Positions 49,323-58,872 of a DNA stretch of 64,000 nt are shown piece after piece. Every line of letters begins with the position of its first letter. Position 1 is the first letter of the stretch. The position numbers and the translations under genes are program-made. Below the pieces are notes generated by a model that was given only the letters and a program-made list of their open reading frames with translations, did no database searches and was not told the DNA's origin. This stretch comes from Bacteroidales bacterium (GTDB lineage Bacteria > Bacteroidota > Bacteroidia > Bacteroidales > 4484-276), in NCBI GenBank assembly GCA_014860585.1, contig JACZJL010000114.1, positions 1 through 64,000 on the forward strand, given 5' to 3'.

Positions 49323-51851
49323 ATGAAAAATGAAGCTCATGCAAGGATTAAAATCAACCAATTGCTGACAAAAGCGGGATGGAGATTCTTTGACAATGAG
49401 GACGGCAAAGCCAATATTTTACTCGAAAACCATGTGAAAATCACGCAACATGAAATTGACGCCTGGGGCAATGATTATGAAAAAACAAAATCCGGCTCTT
49501 TAGATTTCCTTCTCCTTGACAGCGACAACAATCCCGTTTGTGTGCTTGAAGCAAAAAAGGAGAGCCTTCATCCTCTGGTTGCCAAAGAACAAGCCCGAAA
49601 GTACGCTAAAACGGCTGGTGCGAGATATGCGATTTTGTCAAATGGCATTGTTCATTATTTCTGGGACGTAACCAAGGGCAACCCAAAACCTATTTACAAA
49701 TTTCCTTCACCCGAAGAAATTGGAGCAATCAAAAACTGGAATCCTGACAGAAATTCCTTAGTCAGCGAAATAGTAACGGGTGACTACATCGTCAAGATAC
49801 AAATGCCTGACTATGCAGAAAGGCCAGATTGGAAAGGCAGTGTAGATGCCAGCAAAGATTTTATCTGGTCAAATGGACTTAGATTTTTAAGACATTATCA
49901 GTTAAAAGCAATTCAGGCATTACAAGATGCTGTAGCAGAAGGAAAAGACAGATTTCTTTTTGAAATGGCAACAGGAACCGGAAAAACCCTGACTTCTGCG
50001 GCTGTAATCAGATTGTTTTTGAGAACCCAAAACGCAAGGCGGGTTTTGTTTCTGGTTGATCGCCTGGAACTGGAAGACCAGGCCTGGAAAGCTTTTACCG
50101 AATACCTGAAACCCGATTACAGCACATTCATTTTCAAAGAACACAAAAGCGACTGGCGAAAAGCGGACATCCTGGTAACAACCATTCAATCGCTGATGCA
50201 CAACGACAAGTACCGGTATGATTTTTCGCCAACCGATTTTGACCTGTTAATATCTGATGAAGCCCACCGCTCGATTTCAGGAAATGCCCGTGCAGTGTTT
50301 GAGTATTTCCACGGCTACAAATTAGGTTTAACTGCTACCCCCAAAGACTATCTGAAAGGTGTTGATCCTGAAAAGGTAAAAGAGAACGACCCGAGGGAAA
50401 TCGAACGCCGGATGTTGCGCGATACCTACACAACTTTCGGCTGTGAAGGCGGCGATCCAACTTACCGCTATTCATTGCTGGATGGAGTGAAGGATGGTTA
50501 CCTGATCAATCCAAAGGTATTGGATGCCCGCACAGAAATTACCACCCAATTGCTTTCTGACAAAGGTTATGCAGTTGTTGTTCCAACCGAAGAAGGCGAA
50601 GAAACAGAAACCTTTATTTCACGTGATTTTGAAAAGAAATTCTTCTCCGAAAAGACCAACAGCATTTTCTGCCAGACATTTTTGGAAAATGCCTTGCGCG
50701 ATCCGATAACAAAAGAAATCGGCAAAACCATCATTTTCGCTGTAAGCCAGAACCATGCGCGCAAACTGACCGAAATGCTGAATGAATTTGCCGGGCAGCT
50801 TTTTCCCGGGAAATACCATTCCGATTTTGCCATGCAGGTAACGTCTCAGGTAGCTGAAGCCCAACAAATGACCATCAACTTTACCAACAACAATCTGAGC
50901 GGAAAAACTACCTGGCTCGAAGGCTACAAGTCATGTAAAACAAGGGTTTGCGTTACCGTTGGGATGATGACAACCGGCTATGACTGCCCCGACCTGATGA
51001 ACATCTGCATGATGCGACCCATTTTCAGTCCCGCCGATTTTGTGCAGATCAAAGGAAGGGGAACCCGCAAAAACACCTTTGAATTCAAGTTCAAAAACGA
51101 GCTGAACGACGAAGAAATCATCAGGCACGACAAGAAGGTGTTCTACCTGTTCGACTTTTTTGCCAACTGCGAATATTTCGAGGAGAAGTTCGACTATGAT
51201 GAGAAACTGAAATTGCCGCTCCCGAAAAAAGGTACAGGCGTTGGTAGCGACGGCGGGGTTGACATTGATAAATACACCAGCTTTCGTCCCGACCCGCTAT
51301 TAACCGTTAACGAAAAGGAAATTGGCTATGAAGGGATGCGGGTTGATCGCGAGCTGTTCAAAAAGTTTGAAGACCGCATTGTGATGGACGACATCATTAA
51401 AATGAATGTAGAGCTCGGCAACTGGGAACACGTTGTAAGTCACATACAACAGGAAATTTTCGACAAGCCCGAAGAATACTTTAACCTCGAAAAAATCAGG
51501 AAAGCCGCCAAAATTGACCGCAAAGTTTCTATCCGTGAAATCGTGGAGAAAATATTTGGCATCATTCCCAAATTCAAGTCAAAAGACGAATTGCTGGAGG
51601 AAGAGTTTGACAAGTTCATCTCTATCTATCCGCCGGAGGAAGATGTCAACCTCCGGGCGTTGAAGTACTTTTTCAAGGCGTACATAGTTGACCAGGACAT
51701 CAGAAAGATTATTGAGACCAAAGATTTCCATGCTTTACAAACCCACCCAACGCTCACCATTTCACAATTCAGGGCGGTAGCGGCAAAATACAGGGAAGTG
51801 ATTCCTGTTTACATCAAAGATTACATTAACCTTGATAAATTTGCCGCCTGA
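49323..51851 (+). CDS. hsdR: Type I restriction endonuclease R subunit (EcoEI-like)
   Basis: 842 residues from ATG 49323 (MKNEAHARIK); the frame to 49224 overlaps the lipoprotein gene. The N-terminal nuclease has the PD-(D/E)xK pattern LDFLLLDSDNNPVCVLEAKK (about 60-79). The SF2 motor has Walker A FEMATGTGKT (about 213-222), DEAH in LLISDEAHRS, LGLTATP and the arginine-finger motif QIKGRGTRKN. The C-terminal part (about 640-840) resembles the EcoEI R C-terminal domain. It should translocate and cut unmodified DNA with the M and S parts encoded two genes downstream. It overlaps the following gene by one base (TGATG). Confidence 0.93.
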   Translation: MKNEAHARIKINQLLTKAGWRFFDNEDGKANILLENHVKITQHEIDAWGNDYEKTKSGSLDFLLLDSDNNPVCVLEAKKESLHPLVAKEQARKYAKTAGARYAILSNGIVHYFWDVTKGNPKPIYKFPSPEEIGAIKNWNPDRNSLVSEIVTGDYIVKIQMPDYAERPDWKGSVDASKDFIWSNGLRFLRHYQLKAIQALQDAVAEGKDRFLFEMATGTGKTLTSAAVIRLFLRTQNARRVLFLVDRLELEDQAWKAFTEYLKPDYSTFIFKEHKSDWRKADILVTTIQSLMHNDKYRYDFSPTDFDLLISDEAHRSISGNARAVFEYFHGYKLGLTATPKDYLKGVDPEKVKENDPREIERRMLRDTYTTFGCEGGDPTYRYSLLDGVKDGYLINPKVLDARTEITTQLLSDKGYAVVVPTEEGEETETFISRDFEKKFFSEKTNSIFCQTFLENALRDPITKEIGKTIIFAVSQNHARKLTEMLNEFAGQLFPGKYHSDFAMQVTSQVAEAQQMTINFTNNNLSGKTTWLEGYKSCKTRVCVTVGMMTTGYDCPDLMNICMMRPIFSPADFVQIKGRGTRKNTFEFKFKNELNDEEIIRHDKKVFYLFDFFANCEYFEEKFDYDEKLKLPLPKKGTGVGSDGGVDIDKYTSFRPDPLLTVNEKEIGYEGMRVDRELFKKFEDRIVMDDIIKMNVELGNWEHVVSHIQQEIFDKPEEYFNLEKIRKAAKIDRKVSIREIVEKIFGIIPKFKSKDELLEEEFDKFISIYPPEEDVNLRALKYFFKAYIVDQDIRKIIETKDFHALQTHPTLTISQFRAVAAKYREVIPVYIKDYINLDKFAA

Positions 51852-53734
51852 TGAGTGAAAGGAAATACAAGGTTTTTATCAGCAGTGTTCAAAATGAGTT
51901 TGAATCGGAGCGGGCTGCACTGGAGCAATTCTTTTCATCGGATGTTTTACTGCAATTATTTTTCGAAACCTTTCTTTTTGAGCGGATTTCTGCCACAAGT
52001 CAGCCGCCGGAAAGCGTCTTCCTGGGGGAGGTGCAGAAAGCCGATCTCTATATTGGCCTGTTGGGAAAAAAGTACGGATTTGAAGACAAGGATGGGGTTT
52101 CTCCCACCGAAAAAGAGTATGAAGCAGCTAAGAAAAAAGAAATTCCACGCTGGATTTACATTTTAAAAACACCGGAAAAAAGGGATGAAAAGGAAGAGCG
52201 GTTCATTGAGAAAGTGAGCAGCGAAGTTTCGTGGAAGTTCTTCTCCGACATCGAAAGCCTCCGAAAGGAGGTGTATCACACCTGTATTGAGTTTTTGAAA
52301 CAGAAGGGAAAAATCGAAAACAGTGATTTCGACAGCTCGCTTCATCCTTATGCCACACTTGACGACATTAGCGACAACCTTTTGCAGGAATTCATTGTTT
52401 TGGCGCGCGAAAAACGAAACTTTCCCGAAAAACCCAACACCCCCAAAGCTGATGTTTTAAAACGGCTGAACCTGACCCGCAACGGAAAAGTGGTAAACAG
52501 TGCATTGCTGCTCTTTTCAGCTAATCCGCAGCAGTTTTTTCCGTCGGCAACCGTAAAATGTGCACACTTTCACGGAACACTTGTTCAAAAACCAATACCC
52601 GATTACAAGGAATTCGGAGGCACCGTCTGGGATATGGCCGATAGTGCTGTGGACTTCATTCTCTCCAAAATCAATGTCTCAACCGGAACGCGCGACCATT
52701 CCAACCTGGTCGAAACGCAGTATGAAATTCCCAGGGTGGCCTTAGCAGAAGCAGTAATCAATGCCATTGCTCACCGTGACTATTACAGCAAGGGCAGTGT
52801 ACAGATTTCGGTATTCACCGACCGCATTGAAATTGAAAACCCGGGACGCCTGCCCGACGAAATAACCATTGAAGACCTTAAAAAGGTACATTCATCCTAT
52901 CCGCACAATTCTCTTCTGGCAAATTGCCTTTTTCACACCGGCGCCATCGAGCGTTTCGGCACCGGCACCAACGAGATGGTTGATAAGATTACTGAGAGGG
53001 GACTGGCAGAACCTGTATTTGTATCGAGAAATACCTTTAAGGTTGTTCTTTGGCGAAAACTTTTTGCTTATGGGCTAAAGAATAAAGTTAGGGAACAAGA
53101 TAGGGAACAAGATAGGGAACAAGATGGGATACAAGATAGGGAACAAGTAGCAGAACAAATTTTACAGTTGATCCGGCAGATTCAGGGCGAAATGTCAGCC
53201 TCCGAATTGATGGATTTACTGAGCCTGAAAGGCAGAAGGAATTTTACGGAATACTATTTGCAACCATCTATAATGCAGGGTTATATAGAAATGAGCGATC
53301 CTGATAAACCTACAATAAAAACACAAACCTACCACCTGACAACCGACGGTTTGAAGCTTAAAGAAGCCATGAAAGCAGCGCCACCCACGCAGGAAACATC
53401 GCAAGCTACCGAACAAGTAACCGACCAGGTAGCCGAACAAGTAGCCGAACAAGTAACCGAACAAGTAGCCGAACAAGTGACCCGTTTAATAATGCAGTTG
53501 GATGATGAAATGAGTATTAAAGAAATATTGAATGTGTTGGGATTAAAACATCGGCCTACCTTAATTTATGGTTATCTAAACCCTTCATTGAATTCAGGTT
53601 TGGCAGAAATGACCCAACCTCATTCACCCAAAAGCCCGACGCAAAAATACCGCCTCACACCAAAAGGAAAACTTTTGCAACAACAACTCAGAAAAAAGCA
53701 ACATGTTAGACACCCAGACCAAAAGAAGAATTGA
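51851..53734 (+). CDS. DUF4062-HATPase_c_4-winged-helix fusion protein between hsdR and hsdMS
   Basis: 627 residues. An N-terminal DUF4062 domain (YKVFISSVQNEFESERAALE, then ADLYIGLLGKKYGFEDKDG) covers about 5-120. Next is a remnant of an AlbA_2/Schlafen-type module (SALLLFSANPQQFFPSATVK), then an HATPase_c_4 domain of RecG-like type (ALAEAVINAIAHRDYYSKG about 296-314; FTDRIEIENPGRLP; ERFGTGTNEM about 366-375). Two linkers made of four-residue repeats (REQD-type, 413-436; EQVA/EQVT-type, 520-543) are followed by winged-helix segments (SASELMDLLSLKGRRNFTEY and MSIKEILNVLGL). DUF4062 is thought to be a TIR-like fold; that is inference. It overlaps hsdR by 1 bp and hsdMS by 32 bp, so it is translated with them and probably regulates or assists the restriction system. 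Confidence 0.82.
   Translation: MSERKYKVFISSVQNEFESERAALEQFFSSDVLLQLFFETFLFERISATSQPPESVFLGEVQKADLYIGLLGKKYGFEDKDGVSPTEKEYEAAKKKEIPRWIYILKTPEKRDEKEERFIEKVSSEVSWKFFSDIESLRKEVYHTCIEFLKQKGKIENSDFDSSLHPYATLDDISDNLLQEFIVLAREKRNFPEKPNTPKADVLKRLNLTRNGKVVNSALLLFSANPQQFFPSATVKCAHFHGTLVQKPIPDYKEFGGTVWDMADSAVDFILSKINVSTGTRDHSNLVETQYEIPRVALAEAVINAIAHRDYYSKGSVQISVFTDRIEIENPGRLPDEITIEDLKKVHSSYPHNSLLANCLFHTGAIERFGTGTNEMVDKITERGLAEPVFVSRNTFKVVLWRKLFAYGLKNKVREQDREQDREQDGIQDREQVAEQILQLIRQIQGEMSASELMDLLSLKGRRNFTEYYLQPSIMQGYIEMSDPDKPTIKTQTYHLTTDGLKLKEAMKAAPPTQETSQATEQVTDQVAEQVAEQVTEQVAEQVTRLIMQLDDEMSIKEILNVLGLKHRPTLIYGYLNPSLNSGLAEMTQPHSPKSPTQKYRLTPKGKLLQQQLRKKQHVRHPDQKKN
53087..53158 (+). repeat. In-frame 12-bp tandem repeat array 1
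   Basis: Six 12-bp units of the form gatagggaacaa (with variants in units 1, 4 and 6) encode REQD-type repeats. Because 12 is a multiple of three, slippage would change protein length without shifting frame. Confidence 0.9.
53408..53479 (+). repeat. In-frame 12-bp tandem repeat array 2
   Basis: Six 12-bp units of the form gccgaacaagta encode TEQV/AEQV repeats. It lies 250 bp after array 1 in the same gene and again keeps the frame. Confidence 0.9.
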
Positions 53735-56366
53735 CGATTGCAGGGATATCCTGGTGGGCAAACTTCCCGACCCCAAAGCGCAGATAGAGCAGATTACCAT
53801 CGGTTTGATTTACAAGTTTATGGACGACATGGACAAAGAAGCCATTGAACTTGGAGGGAAGTCCAAGTTTTTTTCGGATTATCTGGCGCCCGACCCCGAA
53901 TTTCCCAACGACCGGAGCAAGGACAAAGTGGTGGAGTTCAGCAGGTATGCCTGGAACAACCTGCTGAACCCAAAAGTAACGGCAGCCGAAATGCTCACAC
54001 GCTACTCCGAAGCCATTCAGGGAATGGAGAAAAACCCGAACATCCCACAGTTGTTTCGCGATATCTTCAAAAATGCCTATTTGCCTTACCGCGACCCAGA
54101 AACGTTGAAGCTCTTCCTGAAAACCATTGCCGAATTTGAATACACCCACAGCGAAAAGCTGGGCGACGCCTTCGAGTACCTCCTTTCGGTGATGGGCTCG
54201 CAGGGCGATGCAGGGCAATTCCGCACTCCCCGCCATATCATTGATTTTCTGGTGGCCATCACCGACCCCGGCAAAACCGACGCCATCCTCGACCCGGCGT
54301 GTGGCACGGCAGGCTTCCTGATTTCGGCCTACAAACACATTCTGCTCAAACATACCAAAGCCAATCAGCATGCTGTACAAACGTTGCATGCAACGTCTCA
54401 ACAGTACAATATTTTTAGCTACAACCAGATGGCAGAAAAGCCTTTCAACAACCTGGGCGACCTGCTCACCCCCGACGAGCGCAAAAAGCTGATCCAGAAC
54501 TTTGCGGGGTACGACATTTCGCCCGACATGGTGCGGCTGAGCCTGGTAAACCTCTACCTGCACGGGTTCAACACGCCCAGCATCAGCGAGTACGACACCC
54601 TGAGCAGCGAGGAGCGGTGGAACGAAAGCTACGATGTGATCCTGGCCAATCCGCCGTTTATGAGCCCCAAAGGCGGCATCCGCCCGCACAAGCGGTTCAC
54701 CATCAGCAGCAACCGCAGCGAAGTGCTGTTTGTGGATTACATTGCCGAGCACCTCAACCCCAACGGCCGCGCCGGCATCATTGTGCCCGAAGGAATCATT
54801 TTCCAGAGCGGAACGGCCTACAGGGAGTTGCGCAAAATGCTGGTGGAAAACTACCTGTATGCCGTGGTGAGTTTGCCCGCCGGCGTTTTCAATCCCTACA
54901 GCGGTGTGAAAACCTCCATTCTTTTGCTTGACAAGGAACTTGCGAAAAAGCGGGACGAAATCCTTTTTATCAAAATTGGCAACGACGGCTACAACCTGGG
55001 CGCACAGCGCAACGCCGTGAAAGGCAGCCAGTTGGAAGAGGCCATCGCTATGATTACCGCCTTCCGCCAGGGGTCGCTTTCCCCCCTTCAGGAGGGGCAG
55101 GGGGGGATTATGCATCTTGTCCCCAAACCCGAAATTGTTAAAAGCGGAGATTATAATTTGAGCGGGGAGAGGTATAAATCTATTTTGGTAGTGAATTCAA
55201 ATTATGAAATGATAAAACTATCAGACGAGAGATTTTTCAAGATAGTTTCAGGCGGAACCCCAAGTTCTAATATTGATGAATACTGGAATGGTAGCATAAA
55301 TTGGGCGACATTGGCAGACTTACCTCAATCAGATTTTATTTCATCAATATACGCAACTACAAGAAAGATAACTGAAAAAGGGTTGAAGAATTCTTCTGCA
55401 AGAATTTTACCTGCTAACTCGATTCTGGTCTCAACAAGGGCTACAATAGGAAGAATTGCAATAAATGCTTTAGAGTGTGCCACAAATCAAGGATTCAAGA
55501 ATATCATAATCCATGATATTCAAAAGGTAAATACCTATTTTGTAGCTCTCATGTTGACCAGGATAATTGATAAAATGAATGCAATGGCTACTGGTGGAAC
55601 TTTTAAAGAACTTTCAACTTCAAACTTTAAAACACTTCAAATCCCCCTTCCCCCCTTATCCATCCAGGAAGAGATTGTAGCCGAGATTGAGGGCTACCAA
55701 AAGATTATTGATGGCGCCAAAGCCGTGGTGGCCAACTACAAACCCAAAATTGACATTGACCCGGAGTGGGAGATGGTGGAGCTGGGGAATTTGGCAAAAA
55801 ATTTAGATGGAAAAAGAGTCCCTATTACAAAATCGGATAGACTGAAAGGAAAATATCCCTATTATGGAGCGTCTGGAATTGTTGATTACGTCGACAATTA
55901 CATTTTTGATGATGACTTGCTTTTAATCTCTGAAGATGGGGCGAATCTCCTGGCACGTGTAACCCCGATTGCATTTTCTGTTTCAGGTAAAATTTGGGTT
56001 AATAATCATGCTCATGTTTTAAAGTTTGCACGATATGAAACTCAAAGATTCATTGAGATTTATCTAAATTCTATATCATTGGAGCTCTTTATTACAGGTT
56101 CTGCTCAACCTAAGTTAAATCAGAAAGCACTTAATTCAATACCTATTCCACTCCCTCCCCTTGAAAGACAACACCACATCGTTGCTCAAATCGAAAAAGA
56201 GCAGGAGCTGGTGAATGCCAACAAGCAACTGATCGAAATCTTTGAGCAGAAGATCAAGGACAGGATAGCCAAAGTGTGGGGCAAGCCGCAAAAGAAAGCA
56301 GAAACCGCCACAGAAATTTCGCTGGCCGCTGAACCCCGCTCCGGGTATGTTACAAAGAACCGCTAA
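53703..56366 (+). CDS. hsdM: Fused type I methyltransferase (HsdM) and specificity (HsdS) subunit
   Basis: 887 residues. The N-terminal HsdM part (1-480) has DPACGTAGFLIS (motif I, D197) and ILANPPFMSP (NPPF 316-319), so it is an adenine-N6 methyltransferase. The C-terminal 400 residues are HsdS: TRD1 (about 493-646, SGGTPSSNIDEYWNGSINWA), conserved helix PLPPLSIQEEIVAEIEGYQ, TRD2 (about 697-816, KYPYYGASGIVDYVDNYIF) and the second helix PLPPLERQHHIVAQIEKEQ. M and S are usually separate genes. The two TRDs are clearly AT-richer than the GC-rich HsdM and spacer parts, as if exchanged. A C/G-rich hairpin lies at the M-S junction. It overlaps the DUF4062 gene by 32 bp. Confidence 0.93.
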   Translation: MLDTQTKRRIDDCRDILVGKLPDPKAQIEQITIGLIYKFMDDMDKEAIELGGKSKFFSDYLAPDPEFPNDRSKDKVVEFSRYAWNNLLNPKVTAAEMLTRYSEAIQGMEKNPNIPQLFRDIFKNAYLPYRDPETLKLFLKTIAEFEYTHSEKLGDAFEYLLSVMGSQGDAGQFRTPRHIIDFLVAITDPGKTDAILDPACGTAGFLISAYKHILLKHTKANQHAVQTLHATSQQYNIFSYNQMAEKPFNNLGDLLTPDERKKLIQNFAGYDISPDMVRLSLVNLYLHGFNTPSISEYDTLSSEERWNESYDVILANPPFMSPKGGIRPHKRFTISSNRSEVLFVDYIAEHLNPNGRAGIIVPEGIIFQSGTAYRELRKMLVENYLYAVVSLPAGVFNPYSGVKTSILLLDKELAKKRDEILFIKIGNDGYNLGAQRNAVKGSQLEEAIAMITAFRQGSLSPLQEGQGGIMHLVPKPEIVKSGDYNLSGERYKSILVVNSNYEMIKLSDERFFKIVSGGTPSSNIDEYWNGSINWATLADLPQSDFISSIYATTRKITEKGLKNSSARILPANSILVSTRATIGRIAINALECATNQGFKNIIIHDIQKVNTYFVALMLTRIIDKMNAMATGGTFKELSTSNFKTLQIPLPPLSIQEEIVAEIEGYQKIIDGAKAVVANYKPKIDIDPEWEMVELGNLAKNLDGKRVPITKSDRLKGKYPYYGASGIVDYVDNYIFDDDLLLISEDGANLLARVTPIAFSVSGKIWVNNHAHVLKFARYETQRFIEIYLNSISLELFITGSAQPKLNQKALNSIPIPLPPLERQHHIVAQIEKEQELVNANKQLIEIFEQKIKDRIAKVWGKPQKKAETATEISLAAEPRSGYVTKNR
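55080..55107. repeat. G/C-rich palindrome at the HsdM-HsdS junction
   Basis: TCCCCCC (55080-55086) pairs with GGGGGGA (55101-55107), with a further C-run/GGAGGGG pairing inside. It encodes the unusual SPLQEGQGG linker, resembles Bacteroidota REP-like palindromes, and marks the change from methylase to specificity sequence. Confidence 0.6.
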
Positions 56367-56373
56367 GGCAAGC

Positions 56374-57693
56374 CTACCCGAACATATCCTCCAACGAAAA
56401 AGCGATATGAGTAATCTGATAGCCCGGTAGTTTTTCGGTGATTTCGGTTGAACGAAGCCTTAGTTTTTCGAGATTTATTTTTTTTCGGTTACGCTTTACT
56501 TCGGCAATGAGGGCTGTTTTTTCGTAGTCGTTAACAGCAACCAGGTCAATTTCGTTTTGATTTCGTTTGCTCCAGTAGCGGCCGACCTGTGAGAAGTTTC
56601 CGGTAAGGGCAAGTTTTTCTCTGAAATATTTTTCGAGAAACAAACCGCTATACGTTTCATAATCGCGCTGTACGAGATTCTTCACATAGCCATAATTGCC
56701 AATCTCGAGAGCATTGAGGTATTTATGCACAAATCGGAACCAGAAATTCAGGAAGTTGTCGCTGATCAGATATTTTACATTTCTTGAGCCGGGTTTGGAG
56801 AGCACAGGGCGGATGCTGCTGATAATCTGGTATTCGTGCTCAAGTTTATCTAAAAATCCACCCACATTTTTTTCGAGCACCGATTCAATTTCACTGCGTG
56901 AAGTCCTGGAGGATGCAATCAGTGACAATATGGAAAAATAGGTGGCGTATTCTTTCCCGAACTCTTCAATCAGCAGATTTTTACCCTCTTCAATCAGCAA
57001 CGAGTTGTCGCGAAATATCTCATCAAGCATCAGGTCAAGTGTAAAACATTGTTTATCAGCAAAAAGTTCCACATACTTTGCCACACCACCGGTCAGAACA
57101 TAAAATGCAAGCATATCGTCGGCGCTGAAGCCATTGGGGTTGTAATCCTGCATAATTTCCCCCAATGTATTGATGGAGAATGGCTTTAGGTATATTCTTT
57201 CATTCGTCCTGCCGAACAATGGCTCTTTGGCGTTCTCAAAAATCTTTTTCATCAGGGTAAATATTGAGCCGCTCATGACCAGGTTCATTTTTGTGCGGTT
57301 CTTATATTGATCCCAAAGGTTTTGCATCTCACTGAACACTGATTTGTTGATGTTGTTGAATTCCTGAAATTCATCCAAAACCAAAGTAAAATGCTCGGTT
57401 TCCGAAATTTGGAGCAGTTGCTCAAACAATTTTGAAAAGCTTTTAAACTCCCCGGGTACAGACCGGTTGGTTTTCATAACTAATTCATCTACAAACTCCT
57501 CGCAGAGCAAAGCTTCACTTTTCCGGGTAATAAAGAAGTAAAGCATTTTTTGGTCTTTAAATGCTTCTTTGATCAGTGTAGTTTTGCCAATACGCCGCCT
57601 GCCAATGATCACTGTCATCCTCGATGATTGTTCTGCCATTTTCCGGGTTTCCTCAAATAGTTTCAGCTCAGGGTCACGGTCGTAAAATTTCAT
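56374..57693 (-). CDS. AAA ATPase with DUF234 / PD-(D/E)xK nuclease-like C-terminus
   Basis: About 439 residues from the ATG at 57691-57693. Walker A IIGRRRIGKTTL (about 29-40), Walker B TLVLDEFQEFNN near 110-121, and the segment AKEPLFGRTNERIYLKPFSI (sensor region, about 160-180) place it in the archaeal-type ATPase/DUF234 family. The end has WSKRNQNEIDLVAVNDYEKT followed by ALIAEVKRNRKK, an E-x-D-(x)n-ExK nuclease pattern (about 375-415). These ATPases occur widely in bacterial defence islands and in archaea, and function is mostly unknown. It converges on the hsdMS gene with 7 bp between stops. A -7 element at 57723-57730 rules out the longer frame to 57720. Confidence 0.83.
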   Translation of the reverse strand: MKFYDRDPELKLFEETRKMAEQSSRMTVIIGRRRIGKTTLIKEAFKDQKMLYFFITRKSEALLCEEFVDELVMKTNRSVPGEFKSFSKLFEQLLQISETEHFTLVLDEFQEFNNINKSVFSEMQNLWDQYKNRTKMNLVMSGSIFTLMKKIFENAKEPLFGRTNERIYLKPFSINTLGEIMQDYNPNGFSADDMLAFYVLTGGVAKYVELFADKQCFTLDLMLDEIFRDNSLLIEEGKNLLIEEFGKEYATYFSILSLIASSRTSRSEIESVLEKNVGGFLDKLEHEYQIISSIRPVLSKPGSRNVKYLISDNFLNFWFRFVHKYLNALEIGNYGYVKNLVQRDYETYSGLFLEKYFREKLALTGNFSQVGRYWSKRNQNEIDLVAVNDYEKTALIAEVKRNRKKINLEKLRLRSTEITEKLPGYQITHIAFSLEDMFG

Positions 57694-57722
57694 AATGTTA
57701 ATCTTTAAGTAAAAAATCACTG

Positions 57723-57981: not shown

Positions 57982-58872
57982 GTGTTTTACCGGAGAAAAA
58001 TAATACTCGCTTTGCTTCAGCTGTTTGACGGACAATTGGATAAAATCCGCTTGCAGAAGCTGCTTTTCCTGTTTACCCAAAGACAGGCGAAGGCTGAATA
58101 CGACTTTATCCCTTACCGCTTCGGATGTTTCTCTTATTCTGCCAATGCCGATATGACGGCAATGGTTAAACGGGGCTTTTTAAATGAAGATGAACGAACC
58201 TTTGAAAAGAAAGACAAAACCGACTATTTGAATCAACTAAAGTCAGCCGACCTGAAACTGTTACAGGAAATAAAGTTGCATTTCGGCAGAATGAGTGCGC
58301 CGGCTTTAGTGAAGCATACATACTTGAATTACCCTTTTTACGCCATTAAAAGTGAATCCGCCGAAAGTATTTTGACAAAAGAAGAGTTGGAGAGGGTGTA
58401 CAAGTCGAGGCCGGAAGGAAATAGGACGGTGCTTTTTACCATTGGTTACGAGGGTATTTCGTTGGAAGAATATTTGGTTCGTTTACTAAAGAATGATGTA
58501 AAAGTATTGGTTGATGTCCGGAACAATCCCTTAAGCATGAAATACGGGTTTAGCAAAAGCCAGTTGATGAAATATTGCGGAAGTTTAGGAATACAGTATG
58601 TGCATATTCCCGAAGTTGGCATACAATCAGAACAGCGGAAGGAATTGAATACGCAAAGTGATTACGACAAACTTTTTGCAGTGTATTGCAAAAACAACCT
58701 GCCAAAAACAACTGGTTCGCAAATTCAGATTTTAAACTTGCTGAAAGAGCATAAACGCATCGCGTTGACTTGTTTTGAAGCCAATATTTGTCAATGCCAC
58801 CGGAAGCATTTAGCTGATGCCATTTCCCGACTCATCGGGTCTGCATTCGACTATGAGGTAAAACACATTTAA
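57982..58872 (+). CDS. DUF488-family protein with an N-terminal winged-helix-like domain
   Basis: 296 residues from a GTG. A stop codon just upstream (TAA at 57970-57972) and the conserved start of the protein (RRKIILALLQLFDG) leave no other start. Residues 1-90 (IRLQKLLFLFTQ) look like a DUF4065/Panacea-type helical domain, and 140-290 is DUF488: FTIGYEGISLEEYLVRLL, VLVDVRNNPLSMKYGFSKSQ, and the Cys/His-rich LTCFEANICQCHRKHLADAI with C264. DUF488 proteins are small and found beside phage-defence genes; their activity is uncertain. A truncated gene that often accompanies it follows (58876-59007). Confidence 0.78.
   Translation: MFYRRKIILALLQLFDGQLDKIRLQKLLFLFTQRQAKAEYDFIPYRFGCFSYSANADMTAMVKRGFLNEDERTFEKKDKTDYLNQLKSADLKLLQEIKLHFGRMSAPALVKHTYLNYPFYAIKSESAESILTKEELERVYKSRPEGNRTVLFTIGYEGISLEEYLVRLLKNDVKVLVDVRNNPLSMKYGFSKSQLMKYCGSLGIQYVHIPEVGIQSEQRKELNTQSDYDKLFAVYCKNNLPKTTGSQIQILNLLKEHKRIALTCFEANICQCHRKHLADAISRLIGSAFDYEVKHI

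What the first reader, a model, noticed from the sequence alone, without database searches (positions are those of the whole stretch)
49323..56366. Three-gene type I restriction operon with a DUF4062-HATPase regulator between R and a fused M-S
hsdR, the DUF4062-HATPase-winged-helix fusion and hsdMS overlap by 1 and 32 bp, so they should be made together. The standard type I set has separate M and S genes and no such middle gene. A DUF4062 (TIR-like, predicted) sensing part joined to a RecG/HATPase_c_4 core looks like a conflict-system component. A regulated or multi-layer defence (restriction plus a second NTP-dependent effector) is possible and seems undescribed.
Basis: partly seen in the sequence, partly recalled or inferred. 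Interest (0 to 1): 0.74.

Follow-up and report, generated by a model that had tools for sequence, protein, structure and literature searches.

The report
Restriction operon carrying a TIR-like NADase
A bacterial DNA-cutting defence operon carries, between its cutting gene and its tagging gene, a predicted NAD-destroying "suicide" gene on a sensor chassis; the same gene sits inside restriction operons in many bacteria and some archaea, which suggests a two-layer antiviral defence, although neither layer has been tested here.

Summary
The operon is real: hsdR (49323-51851), a 627-aa middle gene (51851-53734) and a fused hsdM-hsdS (53703-56366), overlapping by 1 and 32 nt. The middle protein is DUF4062 + HATPase_c_4 + two Fic-like winged helices. 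DUF4062 was shown in May 2026 (Swarozyc preprint) to be a TIR-like NADase that acts by abortive infection. The window protein keeps the catalytic Glu (E89, 99 of 100 relatives) and the HATPase N-box. So it is more likely an effector than a regulator, with DUF4062 as warhead rather than sensor. It is not peculiar to this genome. In 100 DUF4062-HATPase loci from many phyla, 36% of directly adjacent same-strand genes are type I R/M/S genes, against 2.4% of genes more than 6 kb away. Orders include R-D-M-S, M-D-S, M-S-D-R and D-R; type III and SNF2-MTase loci also carry it, but about half of the loci are outside restriction systems. The winged-helix tail diverges far faster than partner R and M subunits, as a pathogen-facing sensor would. 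Best reading: a restriction enzyme with an embedded NADase back-up, analogous to PrrC in EcoprrI and Schlafen-HATPase-wHTH back-up effectors of BREX. A new variant of a known kind; the trigger is unknown.

The parts
49323..51851 (+). hsdR, type I restriction subunit (842 aa): PD-(D/E)XK part (EAK at aa 76) and DEAH translocase motor (TGTGKT, DEAH, GRGTR)
   Evidence: PADLOC REase_I E=5e-55; resembles EcoAI family (NF046051, 226 bits, below its cut-off of 550)
51851..53734 (+). middle gene D (627 aa): DUF4062-HATPase_c_4-2x winged helix; predicted NADase effector with sensor tail
51869..52129 (+). DUF4062 (TIR-like NADase) domain of D, aa 7-93; the fold runs on to about aa 150
   Evidence: Pfam 68.8 bits; KpSwz PDB chain 10wc E=0.003; model pLDDT 92.7
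52115..52117 (+). codon of E89, aligned with the catalytic Glu (E97) of KpSwz
   Evidence: invariant in A4/A5, 99/100 in the family
52796..53050 (+). HATPase_c_4 (minimal GHKL/histidine-kinase ATPase) of D, aa 316-400; the N-box E300/N304/H308 lies just upstream
   Evidence: residues 100/100 conserved
53144..53659 (+). C-terminal tail of D with two winged helices (Fic-like_C), aa ~432-603; fastest evolving part of the family
53703..56366 (+). hsdMS fusion (887 aa): N6 adenine methylase joined to a two-TRD specificity subunit
54153..55178 (+). N6_Mtase domain (NPPF motif at aa 316)
55197..56222 (+). two Methylase_S target-recognition repeats

Best explanation
It is a complete type I restriction-modification operon with a built-in second layer. 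HsdR and the HsdMS fusion form the restriction/methylation enzyme (inferred from domains and motifs). The middle protein is a TIR-like NADase (DUF4062) carried on an ATP-binding HATPase core and a winged-helix tail. It is kept idle in healthy cells. When a phage gets past restriction, the tail (or the enzyme's own inhibition) signals infection, the HATPase core oligomerises or rearranges, and the DUF4062 domain degrades NAD+ and stops the infected cell. Shown here: gene structure, domains, conserved catalytic Glu and HATPase residues, recurrent and tightly coupled placement inside restriction operons, fast evolution of the tail. Inferred: NADase activity in this protein, idle state, trigger, abortive outcome. 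On the trigger I lean to direct recognition of a phage component by the tail rather than sensing of R-M inhibition.
For: DUF4062 proteins are NADases and antiphage effectors needing Glu97 (PMC13174449). The Ala in the deposited KpSwz chain is Glu in a 73%-identical natural relative and aligns with E89 here, 99/100 conserved. HATPase N-box E300/N304/H308 100/100. 39 of 110 adjacent same-strand genes are R/M/S vs 4 of 166 genes >6 kb away (odds ratio 22, p=6e-14); control by Pfam alone: N6_Mtase 18/155 vs 2/120, Methylase_S 12/155 vs at most 1/120. 44 of 58 restriction-type neighbours lie within 30 nt of D or overlap it, vs 18 of 57 other neighbours. R-D-M-S order in L053, L062, L086; other orders in many phyla and archaea. 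In related loci R/M are 93-94% identical but the D tail 42-43% over most of its length (L053/L062); R 88% vs tail 48-57% (L082/L083). KpSwz senses the phage portal through an HTH/winged domain.
Against: No activity was measured. About half of the family is not next to restriction genes, so D does not need them; it stands alone on Legionella plasmids and in a sialic-acid-type sugar locus. The G1 box of the HATPase is atypical (NPG instead of DxGxG). A structure search with the DUF4062 model alone returns Ras-like and TIR/N-glycosidase folds alike, so fold alone is not decisive. Homology between the tail and the KpSwz auxiliary domain was not shown.
Confidence: 0.55

Rival explanations
1. PrrC-like guard: D is bound and silenced by the R-M complex itself and fires when a phage anti-restriction protein disables the enzyme.
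For: PrrC is embedded in the EcoprrI type IC operon, sequestered in the enzyme and released on T4 infection (PMC3874165, PMC12707154); D recurs between R, M and S genes with overlapping stops/starts.
Against: D also occurs in type III and SNF2-MTase loci and alone, and its tail diverges much faster than R and M, which is odd for a part that must bind them.
Confidence: 0.25
2. D is a regulator of the restriction system (expression control or restriction alleviation) acting through ATP binding and the winged helices.
For: Winged helices and a minimal histidine-kinase-like ATPase; position inside the operon.
Against: The DUF4062 catalytic Glu is kept in 99 of 100 relatives, which a pure regulator would not need; D occurs without restriction genes in about half of loci.
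Confidence: 0.12
3. D is an independent stand-alone defence gene (Swarozyc-like) that merely hitch-hikes in defence islands and landed in hsd operons without functional coupling.
For: Half of the family is elsewhere; type I context changes at least 14 times on the tree; further defence candidates downstream in the window.
Against: Enrichment is strongest for directly adjacent, same-strand, tightly spaced genes and falls to background beyond 6 kb; repeated insertion between subunits of one enzyme is unlike cargo.
Confidence: 0.25

Closest known systems
Swarozyc (KpSwz), DUF4062 NADase (PMC13174449, May 2026 preprint)
   Same: DUF4062 domain with aligned catalytic Glu; winged/HTH-type C-terminal part
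   Different: KpSwz has no HATPase core and acts as a single gene; here the domain sits on a HATPase core inside an hsd operon
Schlafen (AlbA_2)-minimal histidine kinase-wHTH back-up effectors of BREX and BREX-related systems (PMC12839542)
   Same: apparently the same HATPase_c_4 + winged-helix chassis; found next to modification-based defence; AlbA_2 genes also lie within 2 kb of type I hsdM genes in the genomes searched here
   Different: warhead is a Schlafen RNase there, DUF4062 here (no AlbA_2 hit)
PrrC in EcoprrI (type IC)
   Same: effector gene embedded in a type I operon as a second layer
   Different: PrrC is an anticodon nuclease with an ABC ATPase; no sequence relation
EcoAI-like (type IB) R-M systems; M~S fusions
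   Same: R, M and S domain set; nearest NCBIfam model for R is the EcoAI family
   Different: R scores below the family cut-off; M and S are fused; extra gene

Membership tests
Type I restriction-modification | HsdR with nuclease and translocase domains | tested here: met
Type I restriction-modification | HsdM N6 methylase and HsdS with two TRDs | tested here: met
   (fused in one chain)
Type I restriction-modification | ATP-dependent restriction and methylation activity | not testable with these tools
   -
DUF4062 / Swarozyc NADases | DUF4062 domain above curated cut-off | tested here: met
   68.8 vs 24.7 bits
DUF4062 / Swarozyc NADases | catalytic Glu (KpSwz E97) | tested here: met
   E89
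DUF4062 / Swarozyc NADases | KpSwz-type architecture (DUF4062 + stalk + winged AUX, no HATPase) | tested here: not met
   a HATPase_c_4 core lies between; relation of the tail to AUX not tested
DUF4062 / Swarozyc NADases | NAD+ hydrolysis and abortive infection | not testable with these tools
   -
Schlafen AlbA_2-HATPase-wHTH family | AlbA_2 (PF04326) domain | tested here: not met
   no hit at E<=1
Schlafen AlbA_2-HATPase-wHTH family | HATPase_c_4 core and winged helix | tested here: met
   (3lmm E=1e-14)
PrrC anticodon nucleases | PrrC sequence/ABC ATPase | tested here: not met
   no such family
PrrC anticodon nucleases | gene embedded in a type I operon | tested here: met

The most novel reading that the evidence does not exclude
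DUF4062-HATPase-winged-helix proteins are a general 'plug-in' suicide module for restriction systems (type I, type III and SNF2-MTase) across bacteria and archaea: an NAD+-depleting counterpart of PrrC in which the HATPase core couples the state of the restriction enzyme, or a phage protein seen by the fast-evolving tail, to the NADase.
Probability: 0.35. Interest if true: 0.75.

Novelty: new variant of a known kind. Interest (0 to 1): 0.52.

Why it matters
It would show that NAD+-depleting (TIR-like) immunity is wired into the oldest known antiviral system, restriction-modification, and that one HATPase-winged-helix chassis swaps warheads (Schlafen RNase or DUF4062 NADase) between modification-based defences. 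That makes the long-standing 'immunity coupled to suicide' hypothesis (PMC3506569) testable in a compact three-gene operon.

Tried and rejected
A single-protein scan of named genomes found no relative, but the profile scan found 80. No relative turned up in viral contigs. PADLOC's best hits for the middle gene are Argonaute-associated models that match the shared HATPase core only; rejected as pAgo. 'RecG helicase' rejected: it is only the Pfam description. Promoter and terminator scans gave no more than shuffles. The structure search with the DUF4062 model alone was unspecific. I considered that the enrichment came from my own R/M/S profiles being seeded from these loci; the Pfam-only control shows the same contrast. 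The R-D-M-S order is not shown to be one inherited cassette: the window D is sister to D-R loci L082/L083, not to the other R-D-M-S loci.

Full report
What is there. The finding is accurate. Three genes run on the + strand: hsdR 49323-51851, a middle gene 'D' 51851-53734 and a fused hsdMS 53703-56366, with overlaps of 1 nt (TGATG) and 32 nt. Pfam gives HSDR_N/ResIII for the first, DUF4062 + HATPase_c_4 + two Fic-like_C winged helices for the second, and N6_Mtase + two Methylase_S repeats for the third. Motor, nuclease and methylase motifs are intact.

What D is. DUF4062 was shown in a May 2026 preprint (PMC13174449) to be a TIR-like NADase that protects E. coli from phages by abortive infection (system Swarozyc); the active Glu is E97 of KpSwz. 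The KpSwz chain in the PDB (10wc) aligns with D (E=0.003). At the position of D's E89 the deposited chain has Ala, while a 73% identical natural relative from Acinetobacter has Glu, as expected if the deposited chain is the E97A mutant. E89 is present in 99 of 100 DUF4062-HATPase proteins. The HATPase N-box residues E300, N304 and H308 are present in all 100; the G1 box is atypical (NPG). A model built from 54 sequences is good (pLDDT 87.7); the best solved match is 3lmm (E=1e-14), then a Fic protein (winged helix) and TIR-STING. The DUF4062 part alone matches many Rossmann-like folds, TIR and nucleotide N-glycosidase folds among them, so the fold by itself is not decisive.

Where D occurs. 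The single sequence finds few relatives, but a profile finds DUF4062-HATPase proteins in Bacteroidota, Pseudomonadota, Poribacteria, Planctomycetota, Nitrospirota, Verrucomicrobiota, Omnitrophota, methanogenic archaea and others. I labelled the neighbours in 100 loci. About one third sit in type I loci, in several orders: R-D-M-S (window, L053, L062, L086), M-D-S (L064, L072, L073, L076, L087, L119, L129), M-S-D-R (L106, L126, L128), D-R (L082, L083, L097, L135) and D-R-M-S (L141). About six sit by type III genes (for example Res-D-Mod in L078, SNF2-D-Mod-Res in L084 and L085). About eleven are next to an SNF2 helicase, some of them with a large methylase on the other side. The remaining half have other neighbours. 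The labels are partly manual and some contigs are short.

Is the association real? Among same-strand genes within 300 nt of D, 39 of 110 are R/M/S, against 4 of 166 genes more than 6 kb away in the same loci (odds ratio 22, p=6e-14). An independent check with Pfam models only gives N6_Mtase 18/155 against 2/120, Methylase_S 12/155 against at most 1/120, and HSDR_N 9 among 73 downstream neighbours against at most 1/120. Spacing is tight: 44 of 58 restriction-type neighbours lie within 30 nt or overlap, against 18 of 57 other neighbours. On the tree the type I label needs 23 changes (at least 14 forced by well supported branches), so the module has been taken up or lost many times. The window D is sister to two D-R loci (L082 Chitinophaga, L083), not to the other R-D-M-S loci.

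A clue to function. In three pairs of related loci, D changes faster than its partners and its tail fastest of all: L053/L062 R 94%, M 93%, D core 71-89%, D tail 42-43% (67% in its last stretch), S 37%; L053/L086 R 81%, D tail 43-49%; L082/L083 R 88%, D tail 48-57%. A tail that binds conserved R or M would not be expected to behave so; a tail that reads phage components would. KpSwz reads the phage portal through an HTH/winged domain.

Mechanism. I propose restriction as layer one and NAD+ depletion as layer two, as set out in the best explanation. The idea has precedents: PrrC in EcoprrI (PMC3874165, PMC12707154), the general coupling hypothesis (PMC3506569), and Schlafen-minimal histidine kinase-wHTH proteins as back-up effectors of BREX (PMC12839542). 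AlbA_2 (Schlafen) domains also lie within 2 kb of N6_Mtase genes in several of the genomes searched (for example G243:C89, G343:C4, G362:C9, G243:C14, G271:C189, G413:C274, G343:C25, G267:C66, G267:C21, G378:C95). D is thus the DUF4062 version of a known chassis, placed in R-M operons. What is inferred and untested: NADase activity here, the idle state, the trigger and cell death.

Novelty. No paper held in the library links DUF4062 with restriction operons, but the supplement of the Swarozyc preprint, which shows DUF4062 defence operons, was not readable. I rate it a new variant of a known kind. M-S fusion is a known arrangement of gamma-class methylases (PMC3874165) and is a minor point.

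Noticed in passing
window 56374-57720 (-): ATPase_2/DUF234 protein matching PADLOC candidate PDC-S27 (E=4e-46), convergent with the operon.
   Followed up: no
window 57982-58872 (+): DUF488 protein matching PADLOC candidate PDC-M19A almost end to end (E=4e-127); with the operon this makes a small defence neighbourhood.
   Followed up: no
L096, L153, L156 (also L101, L113, L149, L155, L161): SNF2-type helicase directly upstream of a DUF4062-HATPase gene, in three cases with a 1200-1500 aa methylase-like protein downstream: looks like a distinct restriction-type system that carries the same module.
   Followed up: partly
L078:3861-11394, L084, L085, L121: Type III restriction loci (Res/Mod) with the DUF4062-HATPase gene inside or beside them.
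   Followed up: partly
L056:9511-10992: A DUF4062-HATPase gene inside a NeuB/epimerase/aminotransferase sugar-biosynthesis locus, an unexpected place for a defence effector.
   Followed up: no
L054:6100-14523 (-): Two GmrSD_N-type genes, the DUF4062-HATPase gene and hsdR in a row: modification-dependent restriction next to type I.
   Followed up: no
L162 (Acinetobacter junii plasmid), 164-2052: A Swarozyc-like DUF4062 gene directly downstream of a reverse transcriptase gene, which looks like a retron-type pair.
   Followed up: no
L163, L164 (Legionella plasmids): DUF4062-HATPase gene next to plasmid partition genes; annotated as two CDS in L. hackeliae, so possibly broken there.
   Followed up: no
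L053 and L062: R (94%) and M (93%) of two R-D-M-S loci are nearly identical in genomes of different orders, while S is 37%: recent transfer or shuffling of the cassette.
   Followed up: partly
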